Notes under the pieces: generated by a model
Told to the model about the DNA's origin: nothing
The model's database searches: none
The model's input: the letters and a program-made list of their open reading frames with translations, nothing else
Position numbers and translations under genes: made by a program
Source of the DNA: Tepidamorphus gemmatus
GTDB lineage: Bacteria; Pseudomonadota; Alphaproteobacteria; Rhizobiales; Tepidamorphaceae
DNA length: 64,000 nucleotides
Assembly (NCBI RefSeq): GCF_004346195.1
Contig: NZ_SMAK01000010.1
Location: forward strand, 1 to 64,000
Direction of reading: 5' to 3'
Part shown: positions 8,008 through 19,340 of the stretch, piece after piece
How positions within the stretch are numbered: position 1 is the first letter of the stretch
Layout of the letters: each line of letters starts with the position of its first letter

Positions 8008-8889
8008 TCACTTCTTGCGCGGGAAGCGCCGGGCAAAATCGTCTGCGATCTCGTCCATCGTCACGAACTTGACGCCCGGATGGCTGATCATGTGATTGTA
8101 GAGGCGTTCCAGCATCATCAGTACCTGCGGCCGACCGGAGACGTCGGGATGGATGGTGATCGGGAACACCGCATAATCCATCTCCCGGTAGACCCAGTCG
8201 AACTGGTCGCGCCACATCTCCTCCAGATGGCGCGGGTTGACGAAGCCGTGACTGTTCGGCGCCTTCTTGATGAACATCATCGGCGGCAGATCGTCGAGAT
8301 ACCAGGAGGCCGGGATCTCGATCAGGTCGGTCTCGTGGCCGCGCTTCAGCGGCACCATCCAGTCGGACGGCTTCTTCGAATAGTCGATCTTGGTCCAGGA
8401 ATCGCCCACCCGCACATAGTAGGGCGTGAAGTCGTTATGCATCAGCGAGTGATCGTACTTGATGCCGCGCTCGAGCAGCAGCTCGTTGGTGACATTCGAA
8501 AATTCCCACCAGGGAGCGACGTAGCCGGTCGGCCGGCGACCGGACAGCTTGGTAACCAGCTCGATGCACTTGTCGAGCACCTCGGTTTCCTGCTCGCGGG
8601 TCATCGCGATCGGGTTCTCGTGGCTGTAGCCGTGGATGCCGATCTCATGGCCTGCCTCGGCAACGGCCTTCATCTGTTCGGGGAACGTCTCGATCGAGTG
8701 GCCGGGAATGAACCAGGTGGTCTTGATGCCCCAGCGCTCGAACAGGTTCAGCAGGCGCATCGAGCCTACCTCGCCGGCGAACAGGCCACGCGAGATGTCG
8801 TCGGGCGAGTCCTCGCCGCCATAGGACCCGAGCCAGCCGGCTACGGCGTCGACATCGACGCCGATGCTGCAGAAGATTTCCTTGGCCAT
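8008..8889 (-). CDS. HpPgdA/cyclic-imide-hydrolase-like polysaccharide deacetylase fold enzyme
   Basis: A 293-residue carbohydrate-esterase-4 (NodB-fold) metalloenzyme. From memory it is very close, over its whole length, to the Helicobacter pylori protein PgdA and to bacterial cyclic imide hydrolases of the same subfamily. The metal site is visible as Asp12/Asp14 (GVDVDAV) with His86 and His90 (HGYSHENP). Other signatures are [29 protein letters not shown] and [12 protein letters not shown]. There is no signal peptide, which fits a cytoplasmic hydrolase better than a peptidoglycan deacetylase. A near-perfect AAGGAGG precedes the ATG. Sitting beside an amidase and an uptake system, imide or amide ring hydrolysis is the more likely role, but the substrate is not shown. 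Confidence 0.82.
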
Positions 8890-8930
8890 GTCTGCCTCCT
8901 TGGAGTTTGGGTGGGTTTGGGTGTCGGCTG

Positions 8931-10304
8931 TCAGCCGGGTGTCCCGCGGATCGCCTGCTCGACGTGTCCGGCAAAGGCGAGCAGAGCATCGTCATGCCCG
9001 GACGGCGCGTTGAGCAGGAAACCGGTCGGCATGCCGTCCGCGTCCGTGCCGCAGGGGATCGTGACCCCACACCAGTCGAGGAAGCTCGCCAGCATGGTGT
9101 TGCGCAGCACCCGCGCGTTCACGGCGAAGAAGGTCTCGTCGTCCGCCTCGAGGGGCGCGAGCCTCGGTGCGACGCAGGCGACGGTCGGAAAGGCGATGAG
9201 ACTGCCGGCCGGCACCGCCTGCGCGGCTGCGGCCATCAGCCTCGTGCGACCGGCGATCAGCGCCGCGCGATCCTCCGCGCCGATGCGTCCGCCAAGGCGG
9301 GCGCGGGCGACGACGCGCCGGTCGATCGCCTCGGCGTCGGGACCGGTCACCATGGCGGCGAGCCCGTCATGCGCCTCGGCGGCGACCAGCGTGCCATGTC
9401 GGGCGAACAGGTCGCGGACGTCGTCGAGCACCGGAAGGGCGCGCCGGTCGATGGCGATGCCCGCTGCTGCGAGCCGTTCGAGCGCGGCCTCGAAGGTAGC
9501 GGTGACGGCCGGCTCGGCCTCCTCGAACACGACATTCGTCGGCACCACGATCCTGTGCGGCGCAAGCGCAGCAGGTGCGGGCGGGGGAGCGGCCATGCCC
9601 CGCATCGCCGCATCGACGAGAACCGCGTCCTCGACGCTGCGGCACAGCGGGCCGAGCGTGTCCAGCGACGGTGCGAGGGGATAAACCCCCGCCATCGGGT
9701 AACGGCCGCCGGAGGCCTTGTAGCCGACGAGGCCGTTGAAGGCCGCCGGTATGCGCACCGAGCCGCTGGTGTCGGAGCCCATTGCCACCGGAACCAGACC
9801 CCGGGCGACGGCCACGGCCGATCCCGACGACGATCCGCCGGGAATGCGGGCCTCGCCCGTGCCGTACGGGTTGACGGGCGTGCCGTAGTGAGGGTTGAGA
9901 CCGAGGCCGGAGAAGGCGAACTCGGTCATGTTCGTGCGCCCGACGGTCACCATGCCGGCGGCAGCGAGGCGGGCAACGATCGGAGCGTCCGCCACCGCCG
10001 GCGCTGCGGAGGCAAGCACGCGCGAACCTGCGGTGGTCGGCACGCCGTCGAGGTCGAACAGATCCTTCCAGGCGATCGGCACGCCGTCGAGCGGCCCGGC
10101 CGACGTGCCCGATTGCCGTCGGCGGGCCGCGGCCGCGGCCTCCCGGCGGGCCCGCTCGGGGGTCAGGATCGTGAAGATCGCCCGGTCATCGCACGCGGCG
10201 ATCGCGGCCAGAACCTCCTCGACGAGGTCGCGCGGATCGATCTTGCCGGCCGCGATGGCCCGCCCCAGTTCGGCAGCCGTGCGGGAGTCGCGGGCGCTGC
10301 TCAT
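8931..10304 (-). CDS. Amidase signature family hydrolase
   Basis: A cytoplasmic C-N hydrolase of 457 aa. The Ser-cisSer-Lys triad is visible as Lys in IAWKDLFD, the glycine/serine-rich [10 protein letters not shown], and the nucleophile region [14 protein letters not shown]. The best start is the ATG at 10304, four bases after the stop of the ABC ATPase gene (10309); an upstream TTG at 10319 is possible but overlaps that gene. It is followed 41 bp later by the deacetylase-fold hydrolase. Amidases of this family act on amides, half-amides, carbamates or aminoacyl-tRNA; here context favours a catabolic amide, for example the half-amide released from a cyclic imide. Confidence 0.88.
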
Positions 10305-10308
10305 CGCA

Positions 10309-11415
10309 TCACGCCGCAATCACGGTCGCCTCGTCGGGCGACCAGCTCAGCAGCACCTGCGATTGCGGACGAAACGCGTCGCGCGGGTATTTGTCGACAT
10401 GCCCCTCGAGCAGGATCGACATGCCATTTGCAAGGTCGATGGTCAGATGGGCCAGGTGACCGACGACTTCGCTGCGGCTGACCGCGCCGGTGAGGACGTT
10501 GCCCGAATAGCGCGCCGCGATCGCCTCGCGGTCGGCGCCGTCGATCCGGTGCGCGTCGAGGGCCTCGCCCGGGACGACCAGCTTGGCGCGCGTCTCGGCC
10601 GCAAGGCCGTTCACGGCGTGGCCGGTGAAGCGGCCGAGCGGCGTCTCCACGACGGCCCGTTCGCCGGCGCGCTCGCGGACGATCCCGTCGAGGATCGTGT
10701 TGCGGCCGATGAACTGCGCGACGAACGGCGTCTGCGGCCGCCTATAGAGCACATGCGGCGGGCTGATCTGTTCCACGCGCCCCTGGTTCATCACCACGAT
10801 CCGGTCCGACAGCGCGAGCGCTTCGGACTGCGCATGGGTCACGAACACGAAGGTGATGCCGAGCGTCTTCTGCAGGATCTTGAGTTCGTTCTGGATCGCC
10901 TTGCGCAGATTGGCGTCGAGCGCACCGAGCGGTTCGTCGAGCAGCAGGATCTCGGGTTCCACCACCAGCCCGCGGGCGAGCGCGATGCGCTGCCGCTGGC
11001 CGCCCGACAGCCGGTCGGGCTTCTGGTCGGCGATCGCGGTGAGATCGAGCGTCTCCAGGATGCGCTCGACCCTTGCCTCGCGCTCGGCCCGAGGCATGCC
11101 CTTCACCTCGAGCCCGTAGCCGACGTTGCGGCGCACGCTCATATGCGGGAACAGCGCGTAGTTCTGGAAGATCATCGAGGTCGGCCGCCGCTCCGGTGGC
11201 AGCTCGTTGATCCGCCGGCCGCGGATCAGGATGTCGCCCGACGTGATCGTCTCGAACCCTGCGATCATTCTGAGCGTGGTCGTCTTGCCGCAGCCGGAGG
11301 GGCCGAGAAAGGCGATGAACTCGCCCTTGGAGACGGCAAGATCGAAGTCGATCACGGCAGGCGTGCCGTTGTCGTAGACCTTGCCGACCTTGATCAGTTC
11401 GAGATCGTAGCCCAT
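10309..11415 (-). CDS. ABC transporter ATPase, PotA-like (first copy)
   Basis: ATP-binding subunit of a polyamine/opine/iron-type importer, 368 aa. It has Walker A GPSGCGKTT, the Q-loop IFQNYALFPH, the signature LSGGQRQR, Walker B EILLLDEP, the H-loop VFVTHAQ and a C-terminal TOBE regulatory domain. The start at 11415 is chosen because a strong GGAGAGAGG lies just upstream; a longer frame to 11469 adds an unlikely arginine-rich tail. It directly follows the exported binding-protein gene and is the partner most likely to serve it. A second ATPase of the same class is encoded at 16221-17303. Confidence 0.9.
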   Translation of the reverse strand: MGYDLELIKVGKVYDNGTPAVIDFDLAVSKGEFIAFLGPSGCGKTTTLRMIAGFETITSGDILIRGRRINELPPERRPTSMIFQNYALFPHMSVRRNVGYGLEVKGMPRAEREARVERILETLDLTAIADQKPDRLSGGQRQRIALARGLVVEPEILLLDEPLGALDANLRKAIQNELKILQKTLGITFVFVTHAQSEALALSDRIVVMNQGRVEQISPPHVLYRRPQTPFVAQFIGRNTILDGIVRERAGERAVVETPLGRFTGHAVNGLAAETRAKLVVPGEALDAHRIDGADREAIAARYSGNVLTGAVSRSEVVGHLAHLTIDLANGMSILLEGHVDKYPRDAFRPQSQVLLSWSPDEATVIAA

Positions 11416-15285: not shown

Positions 15286-16188
15286 CTAGAGCTCTTTGCG
15301 GAGGTTGACGATGCGCAGCAGACCGGCGACCACGATGCCCATGATCACCGTCAGCACGACGCCGACCACGGCGGCGAAGGCCCATTTCAGCGAGCCCACC
15401 TGCGTGACGATGATGTTGCCGAGCATGTTGACCTTGCGCCCGGACAGCGCCGCCGAGGTCGCGAACTCGCCGAGCACCATCACCGAGACGAAGATCGAAC
15501 CCACCACGACACCCGGCATCGACAACGGCAGGATGATCGTGCGGAAGATGCGCAGGAAGCCGGCGCCGAGATCGCGCGCTGCCTCGATCACGTTGAGATC
15601 GATGCGGGCGAGCGTGAAGGCGATCGGCCCGACCATGAACACGCAGTAGATCTGCGTCATGCCGATGACCACCGAGAGCTCGGAGAACAGCAGCGCCTCG
15701 ATCGGCTGGGAGGTGATGCCGAGCCCCTGCAGCACGATGTTGATCGCGCCTTCCTTGCCGAGCATCGGCCGCCAGGCCAGCACGCGGATCAGGAAGGAGG
15801 TCCAGAACGGGATGACGCACAGCACGAGTAGCGCCGTCTGCAACGTCCGGTTGCGGACGAACAGGCCGACGAACAGCGCCGCCGGATAGCCGATGAGGAG
15901 TGTCGCCGCCAGCACCGTCAGCCAGATCCGGACCGTCGTCCACAGGGCGGCGAGATAGGTCTCGGACGTGAAGAAGGTGACCCAGCTCTTCACCGTCAGC
16001 GTCGGCTCGATGGTGAAGGTGGTCTGCGTCCAGAACGAGACGTAGACCATCATGGCGATCGGCAGCACCAGGAACAGCACCATCCAGACCACCGCCGGCG
16101 CGATCAGCCAATAGGCGATCCGCTGCCGGTTCGCGGCCGGAGAGGCCGGCCCCTCGTTCGTTGCTTCGCTCATCGTGGTGGTTGTCAT
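15286..16188 (-). CDS. ABC transporter permease, PotB-like
   Basis: Inner-membrane permease of 300 aa with an N-terminal cytoplasmic tail and about six transmembrane segments. The EAA loop is IEAARDLGAGFLRIFRTI followed by LPLSMPG. It is the first of the two permeases in the operon, 32 bp downstream of the second ATPase gene and 127 bp before the PotC-like gene. Its hydrophobic profile and order match the PotB/PotH class. Confidence 0.9.
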   Translation of the reverse strand: MTTTTMSEATNEGPASPAANRQRIAYWLIAPAVVWMVLFLVLPIAMMVYVSFWTQTTFTIEPTLTVKSWVTFFTSETYLAALWTTVRIWLTVLAATLLIGYPAALFVGLFVRNRTLQTALLVLCVIPFWTSFLIRVLAWRPMLGKEGAINIVLQGLGITSQPIEALLFSELSVVIGMTQIYCVFMVGPIAFTLARIDLNVIEAARDLGAGFLRIFRTIILPLSMPGVVVGSIFVSVMVLGEFATSAALSGRKVNMLGNIIVTQVGSLKWAFAAVVGVVLTVIMGIVVAGLLRIVNLRKEL

Positions 16189-16220: not shown

Positions 16221-17303
16221 TCAGGCGAAGACGATCGCGTCCTGCGGCCGCCAGACGAGGCCGTAGCGCTGTCGTTCGGTGTAGGCCGGCGGGGCCCGAT
16301 GACTGAGATGCGCCTCGACCTCGACCATGCCGCCGGCATCGAGGGCGAAGAACGAGGTGACCGACGCCCCGGTATATTCGCTGGCGACGAAGGTCGCCTC
16401 GATGCGGACTTCGTCGGGCGAGGCCCCGGCCCCGGCGGGTCGGACCTCGATGCGGTCGTACCGCACCGCGTAGGCGCCCTCGCGACGACCGCCGGTCGTC
16501 TGGCGAACCGCGCCGGCGATCGGGAACCGACCGGCCGCCGTGGTGAAGGTGTCGTCGGCGAGCTCGCCGGTGAACAGGTTGTAGCAGCTGAGGAAGCGCG
16601 CCACGTTCGGGCTGGCTGGCCGGTCATAGACGCTGGCGGCGTCGCCCACCTGGGCAATCCGCCCGCGGTCGAGCACGACCACCGTATCGCCCATCGCGAG
16701 CGCCTCGGTCTCGCTGCCGGTGACATGCAGGAAGGTGATGCCGAGCCGCTCCCGGATCGCGCGCAACTCGCTGCGCATGCGAGCGCGCAGATTGGCGTCG
16801 AGCGCACCGAGCGGCTCGTCGAGCAGCACCAGCTTGGGCTCTGTCACCAGCGTGCGGGCCAGCGCCACACGCTGCCGCTGGCCGCCGGAAATCTGGTCGA
16901 TGCGGCGACTCTCGAGTCCGGTCAGGCCGACGAGCGCGATCATGTCCCGCACCCGGGCGTCGGCGAGGCGCGGGGCGAGCGGCGCCTCCTCGCGGTTGAC
17001 GAGGCCAAAACCGATGTTCTCCTTCACCGACAGATGCGGGAACAGCGCGAAATTCTGGAACACAAAGCCGATGCCGCGACGGTGGGCCGGGACGCGGTCC
17101 ATCGGCCGCCCGGCAACCACGACCTGTCCGGCGTCCGGCTCCTCGAAACCGGCGATCACCCGCAGCAGCGTGGTCTTGCCCGAGCCGCTCGGGCCGAGCA
17201 GCGAGACATATCGATCTGCGGCAATGCGCAGCGACACGTCATCGAGGGCGACGACATTGCCATAGGACTTGCTGAGACCGCTGACGAGGAGAGCGTTGGT
17301 CAT
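16221..17303 (-). CDS. ABC transporter ATPase, PotA-like (second copy)
   Basis: First gene of the leftward operon, a 360-residue ATP-binding subunit. Walker A is GPSGSGKTT, the Q-loop is VFQNFALFPH, the signature ISGGQRQR, Walker B KLVLLDEP, and the usual H-loop histidine is retained in LHVTGSETEALA as an altered context (T-G instead of T-H). That change means the switch histidine of the H-loop appears to be replaced by glycine. A C-terminal TOBE domain follows. With the permeases immediately downstream it would form the transporter core, while the other ATPase (10309-11415) keeps a normal VTHAQ. Confidence 0.87.
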   Translation of the reverse strand: MTNALLVSGLSKSYGNVVALDDVSLRIAADRYVSLLGPSGSGKTTLLRVIAGFEEPDAGQVVVAGRPMDRVPAHRRGIGFVFQNFALFPHLSVKENIGFGLVNREEAPLAPRLADARVRDMIALVGLTGLESRRIDQISGGQRQRVALARTLVTEPKLVLLDEPLGALDANLRARMRSELRAIRERLGITFLHVTGSETEALAMGDTVVVLDRGRIAQVGDAASVYDRPASPNVARFLSCYNLFTGELADDTFTTAAGRFPIAGAVRQTTGGRREGAYAVRYDRIEVRPAGAGASPDEVRIEATFVASEYTGASVTSFFALDAGGMVEVEAHLSHRAPPAYTERQRYGLVWRPQDAIVFA

Positions 17304-17498
17304 GGCCGCCCCACGCCGTCAGCGAAACGAGCCGATTGGTGCGGCCGCAACGGCCCGCACAGGTCGACCTTTGGTCGCCATCGTTCCTGTCCCCTCTCGT
17401 TGAGGCCCGCGCCTGCGCGCCCACGACCGTCGCCGCGGGCGGCCCGCCTCGTCCTCCCGGCGGCCTGCCTGTCGATGGGAGGCTAGGATAAATGATTT

Positions 17499-17511
17499 TT
17501 GTATGCAATAG
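17499..17511 (+). promoter_or_regulatory. Candidate GntR operator, copy 1
   Basis: TTGTATGCAATAG, containing the near-palindrome TTG-N4-CAA. It overlaps a longer inverted repeat ATGCAA-N8-TTGCAT at 17503-17522. It lies about 195 bp upstream of the operon's first ATG in an AT-rich promoter-like block. FCD-type GntR regulators commonly bind TTGTA..ACAA-like sites. Confidence 0.6.
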
Positions 17512-17708
17512 TTTTGTTGCATTCGGAGCAACGCGACATGCTGGATGACCCGGAGCCGTGCCGGCAAGGCGCCGGAGAAGGTCGGAGTACTCAGATTATC
17601 CGACAATGCATGATGGGATCGGCATCGTGCCGGCGCCCCACCCTGACAGGGTTGGCGATGCCGATGCCGGGAGCGGATGCCGCCTTTCGCATCAGCATCG
17701 TGATGCAA

Positions 17709-17721
17709 TTGTACGCAATAG
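17709..17721 (+). promoter_or_regulatory. Candidate GntR operator, copy 2
   Basis: TTGTACGCAATAG, identical to copy 1 except for one C/T change, and starting exactly 210 bp after it, which is 20 turns of B-DNA. It lies about 65 bp upstream of the regulator's start, where it could give autoregulation. Confidence 0.6.
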
Positions 17722-17785
17722 CCATTTCATTGGTCCCGGAAACGGGCGTCCGACAGGCTCGCGTGCGGAGGCTACCGGAGGCATG

Positions 17786-18835
17786 ATGGTCGCTCCGAAC
17801 CGCCAGCAGAGGACGCTGCCGTCCATGAGCAAGGGGCCGCCATCAGTGTCGGCGCTGCGCCGCTACGAGATTGTCGAGCGCATCCTGCGCCGCAATATCG
17901 AGAAGGGTCAGCTGCCCCGCGGTCTGGTCCTGCTCGAGGGTCCGATCGCCGAGATCCTGCAGACCAGCCGCGCCCCGGTGCAGCGCGCCCTGCAGCTGCT
18001 CGAGGCGGACGGCCTGATTCACCGCTTCGACGGGCGTGGCTATCTGGTCGGCCCGCCGGGCTGCGGGGCGGAAGCGCTGCGCACCGACATCAAGGCGCTG
18101 GGGCTGGAGATCCCTCACGAGGCGGGGGCAGCCCTGCTCAGCCGCGGTTCGTGGATGCGCATCTACGAGACCGTCGAGACGGATGTCGCGGCCTGTATCG
18201 TGTTCGGCCAGTTCCGGCTGGTCGAGGCGGAGCTCGCCCGGCACTTCAGCGTCAGCCGGACGGTGGTGCGCGACGTGCTCGGCCGCCTGCAGGAGCGCGG
18301 GCTCGTCCGCAAGGATCAGAGCTCGCACTGGGTGGCGGGGCCGCTGACCGCGCGCTCCATCAAGGACCACTTCGCGCTCCGCGGGATCCTCGAACCGCCC
18401 GCGCTGGTCGATGCTGCGCCGCATCTCGACCGCGACCGGCTGGCCCGCCTCCACGCGCAGTTCCGGGCCGCCGAGACAATCGACACGGACGACGAGGATG
18501 ACAGTCTCGAGGCGTTCGAGACGCTGCTTGTCGATACCTGCGTGCTGACCACGCCGAACAACCGCCTGGCGCAGATGATCTGCGACAATCTGCTGCCGGT
18601 CCTCGCCGCCGACCGGGTCTTGCGCCAGCTCGGCCTGCCGGCCGACCGCAGTGCCATCACCGAGCATCGCATGATCGTCGAGCTGCTGTTGCGCGACGCG
18701 GTGGCGGCGGCGGCGGAAATGCTGTCGGCGCACATTGCCGCCGCCGCCGGCCGCAGCCTCGCCCAGATGAAGATCGTCGCCGTGATTCCCGAGCCGGCGC
18801 ATCTGGCGCCTTACCTGACCCGGGAGGCGTCCTGA
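17786..18835 (+). CDS. GntR-type transcription regulator with two winged-helix domains
   Basis: A 349-residue regulator divergent from the transport operon, so probably its controller. Two separate GntR-like winged helices can be read. The first, about residues 25-92, contains GPIAEILQTSRAPVQRALQL, then LEADGLIHRFDGRGYLV. The second, about 128-190, contains EAELARHFSVSRTVVRDVL, then LQERGLVRKDQSSHWV. A mostly helical FCD-like effector domain follows. GGAGG at 17777-17781 supports the ATG at 17786 (or the adjacent one at 17783); the next ATG at 17825 has a weaker site. Most GntR proteins have a single N-terminal HTH, so the double head is unusual. Confidence 0.82.
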   Translation: MVAPNRQQRTLPSMSKGPPSVSALRRYEIVERILRRNIEKGQLPRGLVLLEGPIAEILQTSRAPVQRALQLLEADGLIHRFDGRGYLVGPPGCGAEALRTDIKALGLEIPHEAGAALLSRGSWMRIYETVETDVAACIVFGQFRLVEAELARHFSVSRTVVRDVLGRLQERGLVRKDQSSHWVAGPLTARSIKDHFALRGILEPPALVDAAPHLDRDRLARLHAQFRAAETIDTDDEDDSLEAFETLLVDTCVLTTPNNRLAQMICDNLLPVLAADRVLRQLGLPADRSAITEHRMIVELLLRDAVAAAAEMLSAHIAAAAGRSLAQMKIVAVIPEPAHLAPYLTREAS

Positions 18836-18972: not shown

Positions 18973-19150
18973 GTGACCCGACCTCCACCCAACGACATGC
19001 GTGAGCGTGTTGTTGAGGCGGTTTGCCGCAAGGAGAGCTGCCGCGCCGTTGTGACGCGGTTCGGTGCCGCGGTTTCCTGGGGCATGCAGCAGCCGCAGCG
19101 TCGTCGGGTGAGCGGATCGGTCGCGCCAAGCAGGAGGGGCGGGCGCCGCC
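18973..19150 (+). pseudogene. IS630-family transposase N-terminal remnant
   Basis: A rightward frame reads DMRERVVEAVCRKESCRAVV, then TRFGAAVS and RRRVSGSVAPSRRGG. This is the degenerate helix-turn-helix start of an IS630 transposase (compare the usual LRERVV.AV, A..FGVS and GSVAPS..GG). The catalytic part is absent and the usual SVRW of the HTH is corrupted, so it is a relic. Confidence 0.7.
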
Positions 19151-19179
19151 GGCCCATTCCGGAGCCGCACCGCGCCTGC

Positions 19180-19340
19180 GTCGGGTCGAAGGCGTGCCTG
19201 CGCACAGCACCAAGAAGATGCCGTTCGGCACCTTGCGGTCATCGAGCGGCAACCGGCCGTTGCGCACCTCGCCGGCGCCGGGCAGCAGCGGCGCGACGAT
19301 CGCCCTTTCCCCATCTCTGAGATCAAGCCGCGCCAACTCG
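19180..19340 (-). pseudogene. IS5-family transposase N-terminal remnant
   Basis: A leftward frame reads ELARLDLRDGERAIVAPLLP, then DDRKVPNGIFLVLCAGTPS. It matches the N-terminus of IS5-family (IS427-like) transposases (LTDEEW..L.PLLP, DDRR.LNGIFWVLRTGAPW). No DDE domain follows and several key residues have changed. It abuts the IS630 relic, suggesting nested insertions and decay. Confidence 0.7.

What the first reader, a model, noticed from the sequence alone, without database searches (positions are those of the whole stretch)
17499..17721. Paired 13-base operators exactly 210 bp apart in a divergent promoter region
TTGTATGCAATAG and TTGTACGCAATAG start 210 bp apart in the same orientation, which is 20 helical turns, in the 482-bp region between the operon and its likely regulator. 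This is what DNA looping by one regulator would need.
Basis: partly seen in the sequence, partly recalled or inferred. Interest (0 to 1): 0.6.

Follow-up and report, generated by a model that had tools for sequence, protein, structure and literature searches.

The report
Paired looping operators, spaced by helical turns
Two copies of a gene switch's docking site flank the start of a transport operon and of its regulator gene in dozens of related species, and the distance between the copies changes by whole turns of the DNA helix, as expected if one protein ties both sites into a loop.

Summary
They belong to a longer operator, about TTTTGTATKCAAWAnnC[AT]TTT, found as a pair in nearly every ortholog of the adjacent regulator that shares at least 54% identity. 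Site A overlaps the -35 and spacer of the operon promoter (TTGMAT, 17 bp, xATnnT). Site B lies upstream of the regulator gene. Where the regulator gene sits elsewhere, the site stays with the operon. The regulator is a GntR/FCD protein with two winged-helix domains instead of one. The 210-bp spacing is not conserved: spacings run from 126 to 320 bp. They are quantised, though. Reconstructed changes cluster at 9-13, 21-24 and 31-35 bp, with a period of 11.35 bp (bootstrap 10.65-11.55), which matches published in vivo loop repeats (11.0-11.6). The signal fades when other landmarks replace either operator. This supports repression by DNA looping over a variable number of whole turns, not an exact 20 turns of 10.5 bp; the window's own pair sits about 0.3 turn off the family grid. 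Closest precedent: tetrameric Atu1419 of Agrobacterium. Binding, oligomeric state and looping are untested by experiment.

The parts
17491..17517 (+). Operator A (operon side), AATGATTTTTGTATGCAATAGTTTTGT; 13-mer core 17499-17511
   Evidence: conserved in orthologs, logo; PWM score 27.6
17706..17727 (+). Operator B (regulator side), CAATTGTACGCAATAGCCATTT; 13-mer core 17709-17721
   Evidence: PWM score 16.1; logo
17503..17508 (-). predicted -35 of the operon promoter, TTGCAT, inside operator A
   Evidence: TTGMAT in nearly all 84 distinct site A sequences, 17 bp before a conserved -10
17480..17485 (-). predicted -10 of the operon promoter, TAGCCT
   Evidence: second base A in 80 of 84 and sixth base T in 70 of 84 at this offset
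17512..17708 (.). DNA between the two 13-mers, the proposed loop; start-to-start spacing of the sites is 210 bp
   Evidence: sequence scrambled between close relatives while its length moves in about 11-bp steps
17783..18835 (+). regulator: two GntR winged-helix domains (about residues 27-89 and 112-185) plus a six-helix FCD domain (190-332)
   Evidence: Pfam PF00392 twice and PF07729; AlphaFold2 model, pLDDT 83.5
16221..17303 (-). first operon gene, ABC transporter ATPase of the PotA/PhnT type
   Evidence: PF00005 and TOBE_2
15286..16188 (-). ABC permease (PotB-like)
   Evidence: PF00528
14295..15158 (-). ABC permease (PotC-like)
   Evidence: PF00528
13567..14298 (-). SDR oxidoreductase
   Evidence: PF13561
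12773..13549 (-). SDR oxidoreductase
   Evidence: PF13561
11486..12748 (-). extracellular solute-binding protein
   Evidence: PF13416
10309..11469 (-). second ABC ATPase
   Evidence: PF00005
8931..10319 (-). amidase
   Evidence: NF004766 above its cut-off
8008..8889 (-). polysaccharide deacetylase family hydrolase
   Evidence: PF01522

Best explanation
The two sites are the operators of the divergently encoded tandem-winged-helix GntR/FCD regulator. Bound at operator A it covers the -35 and the -35/-10 spacer of the ABC-transporter/SDR/amidase operon and blocks RNA polymerase. Bound at operator B it acts near its own promoter. Protein on A and protein on B (a tetramer, or two dimers) touch and close a DNA loop, so both promoters are shut together until a small ligand bound by the FCD domain, probably linked to the transported substrate, releases it. 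Shown here: conservation and position of both sites, promoter overlap at A, domain make-up of the regulator, and spacing that evolves in helical-turn steps. Inferred: that this protein binds, that it represses, that loops form, and the ligand.
For: The motif pair occurs only here in the genome. It is present in nearly all divergent orthologs of at least 54% identity (145 loci, 94 distinct spacers). In the roughly 50%-identity group with regulator and ATPase genes in line, the site lies between them, upstream of the ATPase gene, so it follows the operon. Site A contains TTGMAT, 17 bp, xATnnT in 84 distinct sequences. Spacing periodicity: 49 clusters with no BLAST match between their spacers, R 0.49 at 11.35 bp, jitter p 0.0001 with the period scanned, p 0.01 at 10.5 and 0.0001 at 11.0. 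Reconstructed changes of 6-38 bp: 25 of 28 within a quarter turn of a whole turn. No null tree simulation reached the observed statistic in three settings of 1500; in earlier settings of 500 at most 2 did. Specificity: the mean cosine at 11 bp is 0.48 for A-B, 0.34 for A-to-regulator anchor, -0.06 for WalkerA-to-B and 0.09 for anchor-to-anchor. Published in vivo loop repeats are 11.08 and 11.60 (PMC1762422) and about 11 (PMC8501960).
Against: No binding data. The window's own 210 bp is about 0.3 turn off the family grid, and the Mesorhizobium group (314-317) is nearly half a turn off. Part of the conservation of A is promoter conservation. Spacings are related by descent, the tree is a gene tree, and the 10-11.8 bp scan range was set after the period was seen. 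Site B of the window scores lower than A. No solved relative has two winged-helix domains, so the tetramer idea rests on the single-domain Atu1419.
Confidence: 0.65

Rival explanations
1. Both sites are operators of the regulator but act independently: A represses the operon, B autoregulates the regulator gene, and no loop forms.
For: Each site sits close to its own gene, A at an almost fixed distance. Suvorova et al. 2015 (PMC4494728) read double-site GntR divergons whose spacing grows with the gap as independent sites. Spacing here varies widely.
Against: Independent sites give no reason for spacing changes to fall at whole helical turns, and the signal weakens when either operator is replaced by another landmark.
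Confidence: 0.22
2. The spacing steps come from mutation, such as gain and loss of units of about 11 bp or of phased bent DNA, not from looping.
For: Some sister pairs differ mainly by one block (L047 vs L116, a 12-base gap). Lengths to the ATPase anchor also change by 8-12 bp at times.
Against: In most sister pairs the spacer is rewritten with many gaps of varied size that sum to about one or two turns. Distances to other anchors lack the period.
Confidence: 0.07
3. The sites belong to another protein or are promoter parts only, not operators of this regulator.
For: No binding data. Site A contains the -35.
Against: Conservation extends well outside -35 and -10, site B carries the same long motif, and the motif is confined to the locus with the regulator and operon.
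Confidence: 0.05
4. The pair is a chance repeat.
For: Two short, AT-rich sites.
Against: 0.24 expected in the window with 2 mismatches; conserved in dozens of species.
Confidence: 0.005

Closest known systems
Atu1419 of Agrobacterium fabrum (VanR group of GntR/FCD), PMC7797058, PDB 6z74 and 6za3
   Same: FCD regulator; two sites 190 bp apart in a divergent region with its own gene, sites overlapping core promoter elements; looping proposed by the authors; its winged helix and FCD domain match this protein.
   Different: One winged helix per chain, 10-bp perfect palindrome ATGTATACAT, tetramer shown by structure and SEC-MALS. Here two winged helices, a longer asymmetric operator, oligomeric state unknown.
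AraC araO2-araI1 and LacI loops
   Same: Two distant operators, phase-dependent repression, in vivo repeat of about 11-11.6 bp (PMC1762422, PMC8501960; the AraC details are from memory).
   Different: Unrelated protein families; phase dependence there was measured by experiment, here it is inferred from natural spacing variation.
Double-site GntR divergons of Suvorova et al. 2015 (PMC4494728)
   Same: FadR-subfamily regulator divergent to its operon with two sites whose spacing varies.
   Different: That survey took variable spacing as a sign of independent sites and, in the section read, did not report helical periodicity or tandem winged-helix members.
NanR of E. coli (PMC8012715)
   Same: GntR/FCD repressor using a multi-part operator.
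   Different: Three dimers on adjacent repeats, no distant pair (abstract only).

Membership tests
GntR superfamily, FCD (FadR-C) subfamily | GntR winged-helix DNA-binding domain (PF00392) at the N-terminus | tested here: met
   two matching stretches, E 1.1e-19
GntR superfamily, FCD (FadR-C) subfamily | FCD ligand-binding domain (PF07729) | tested here: met
   33.2 bits against a cut-off of 24.3
GntR superfamily, FCD (FadR-C) subfamily | single winged helix, chain of about 230-250 residues as in the solved relatives (usual layout, not a formal criterion) | tested here: not met
   two winged helices, 350 residues; hence filed as a tandem variant
VanR group of FCD regulators | FCD domain of six helices | tested here: met
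   six helices in 190-332 of the model; match to Atu1419
VanR group of FCD regulators | palindromic operator | tested here: inconclusive
   core TTG-TATK-CAA is an imperfect dyad; outer arms are asymmetric
DNA-looping repressors (LacI, AraC, Atu1419 type) | two operators for one regulator around the promoter | tested here: met
   conserved pair, A over the -35; binding itself not shown
DNA-looping repressors (LacI, AraC, Atu1419 type) | dependence on helical phase | tested here: inconclusive
   met at the level of evolution; not testable as repression here
DNA-looping repressors (LacI, AraC, Atu1419 type) | oligomer able to hold two sites | not testable with these tools
   no oligomer assay or complex prediction available

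The most novel reading that the evidence does not exclude
A tandem-winged-helix GntR/FCD repressor family that loops its divergent promoter region. In it, evolution has rewritten the loop DNA while keeping its length on a grid of whole helical turns, giving a natural record of the in vivo helical repeat of DNA loops (about 11.35 bp) without any experiment.
Probability: 0.5. Interest if true: 0.75.

Novelty: new variant of a known kind. Interest (0 to 1): 0.6.

Why it matters
Looping is usually shown in a few model operons by moving operators in the lab. Here natural variation in dozens of species gives the same answer and an in vivo repeat close to the laboratory values. That suggests comparative genomics can separate looping pairs from independent pairs in the many double-site divergons already catalogued, some of which were read as independent because their spacing varies. 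The tandem winged-helix layout also raises a concrete question of how four winged helices per dimer read an asymmetric operator.

Tried and rejected
A single-sequence scan of genome contigs found no relatives; an alignment query worked. A Brownian null on the tree made too many periods significant and was dropped as too lenient. Clustering by protein identity alone gave weak, unstable results at 10.5 bp. A class-wide search found no further close ortholog. No Rfam family matches the region. The consensus sigma-70 scan found no promoter; the promoter at A came from comparison of orthologs. Literature searches for a tandem-winged-helix GntR/FCD protein found none in the open library.

Full report
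Observation. The two 13-mers are at 17499-17511 and 17709-17721, same strand, starts 210 bp apart. They are the only exact copies in the 3.78-Mb genome; with one mismatch and a looser pattern the other three hits equal background. The divergent genes are an ABC transporter ATPase (start 17303, minus strand) that opens an operon of transport, SDR, amidase and deacetylase genes, and a regulator (17783-18835).

The regulator. Pfam finds two GntR winged-helix domains and an FCD domain. An AlphaFold2 model from 47 orthologs (pLDDT 83.5) shows two winged helices followed by six FCD helices. Foldseek and phmmer match it to single-winged-helix FCD proteins including Atu1419; no solved protein with both winged helices was found.

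Conservation. Nearly all with at least 54% identity and the divergent layout carry two sites with core GTAYKCAA. In all, 145 loci with two sites gave 94 distinct spacers; some species appear in both collections. The logo is about TTTTGTATKCAAWAnnC[AT]TTT; site A also has a left arm AATGAT that mirrors TCATT. Exceptions inform: in the Allorhizobium/A. vitis group site B is inverted, so the shared orientation is not essential. In a group of about 50% identity where the regulator gene precedes the ATPase gene on the same strand, sites lie between the two genes: the operator stays with the operon.

Promoter. Read toward the operon, site A is TTGMAT, 17 bp, then a hexamer with A at position 2 (80 of 84) and T at position 6 (70 of 84). 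In the window these are TTGCAT (17508-17503) and TAGCCT (17485-17480). Much of the spacer between them is as conserved as the hexamers, which fits an operator covering it. A bound protein there would block polymerase (inference). The promoter of the regulator gene could not be placed with confidence.

Spacing. 210 bp is not conserved: spacings are 126 and 194-320 bp. Their distribution is lumpy, near 229-230, 239-243, 250-253, 260-267, 273-278 and 284-290. Three tests follow. (1) Grouping spacers by BLAST similarity leaves 49 groups with no match between them; R is 0.49 at 11.35 bp, and random jitter of 12 bp either way reaches this in 0.0001 of trials with the period scanned over 10-11.8; at a fixed 10.5 bp p is 0.01, at 11.0 it is 0.0001. 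(2) Parsimony on the regulator tree gives changes of 9-13, 21-24 and 31-35 bp and few between; 25 of 28 changes of 6-38 bp lie within a quarter turn of a whole turn. In tree simulations with unphased changes none of three settings of 1500 reached the observed value; in earlier settings of 500, at most 2 did. Removing any one large clade leaves the signal. (3) Distances to other anchors: mean cosine at 11 bp is 0.48 for A-B, 0.34 for A to a regulator anchor, -0.06 for WalkerA to B, 0.09 for anchor to anchor. Sister spacers are mostly rewritten, with many gaps that sum to one or two turns. The bootstrap period is 11.35 (10.65-11.55). Published in vivo loop repeats are 11.08 and 11.60 (PMC1762422) and about 11 (PMC8501960).

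Limits. The groups share ancestry, the tree is of one gene, and the scan range was fixed after the period was seen. The window's 210 lies 3.5 bp off the best grid, and the Mesorhizobium group about 5 bp off. So the family supports looping better than this one pair does.

Known relatives. Atu1419 of A. fabrum is a tetrameric FCD regulator with two palindromes 190 bp apart in a divergent region, and its authors proposed looping (PMC7797058). Suvorova et al. took variable spacing in double-site GntR divergons as independence (PMC4494728). The present case is the Atu1419 kind with a tandem winged-helix protein and a longer operator, plus evolutionary evidence for phasing. The ligand is unknown. 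In R. johnstonii 3841 the same operon lies on pRL12 next to 5-oxoprolinase-like genes, a lead only.

Noticed in passing
G000:C2:135839-136786 and G000:C1:303481-304461: Two paralogs of the tandem GntR/FCD regulator in the same genome, 37-39% identical, without this operator in the fetched surroundings.
   Followed up: partly
L120, L126, L132, L167 (Allorhizobium/A. vitis group): Regulator-side site inverted relative to the other orthologs (in L126 only by eye), at 226-229 bp from site A where measured; a natural test of orientation dependence.
   Followed up: partly
L049, L145, L173: Regulator and ATPase genes in line rather than divergent, with one or two operator-like sites between them (83 bp apart in L049 and L145).
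   Followed up: partly
window 8008-10319 and L223 (pRL12 138000-154500): Amidase, polysaccharide-deacetylase-like hydrolase and, in Rhizobium, 5-oxoprolinase/allophanate-hydrolase-like genes hint at uptake and opening of a cyclic amide or ureide; substrate unknown.
   Followed up: no
window 18998-19200: ORF starting MRERVVEAVCRKESCRAVVTRFG looks like the remnant of an IS630-type transposase N-terminus (by eye).
   Followed up: no
L137 (NZ_VCCH02000005.1): Record titled Mycobacterium sp. KBS0706 carries this locus almost as in Inquilinus limosus (L135), same 126-bp spacing; the name is probably wrong.
   Followed up: no
window 17304-17473: Predicted 5' leader of the operon is about 170 nt long and its length is well kept in relatives; no Rfam match.
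   Followed up: partly
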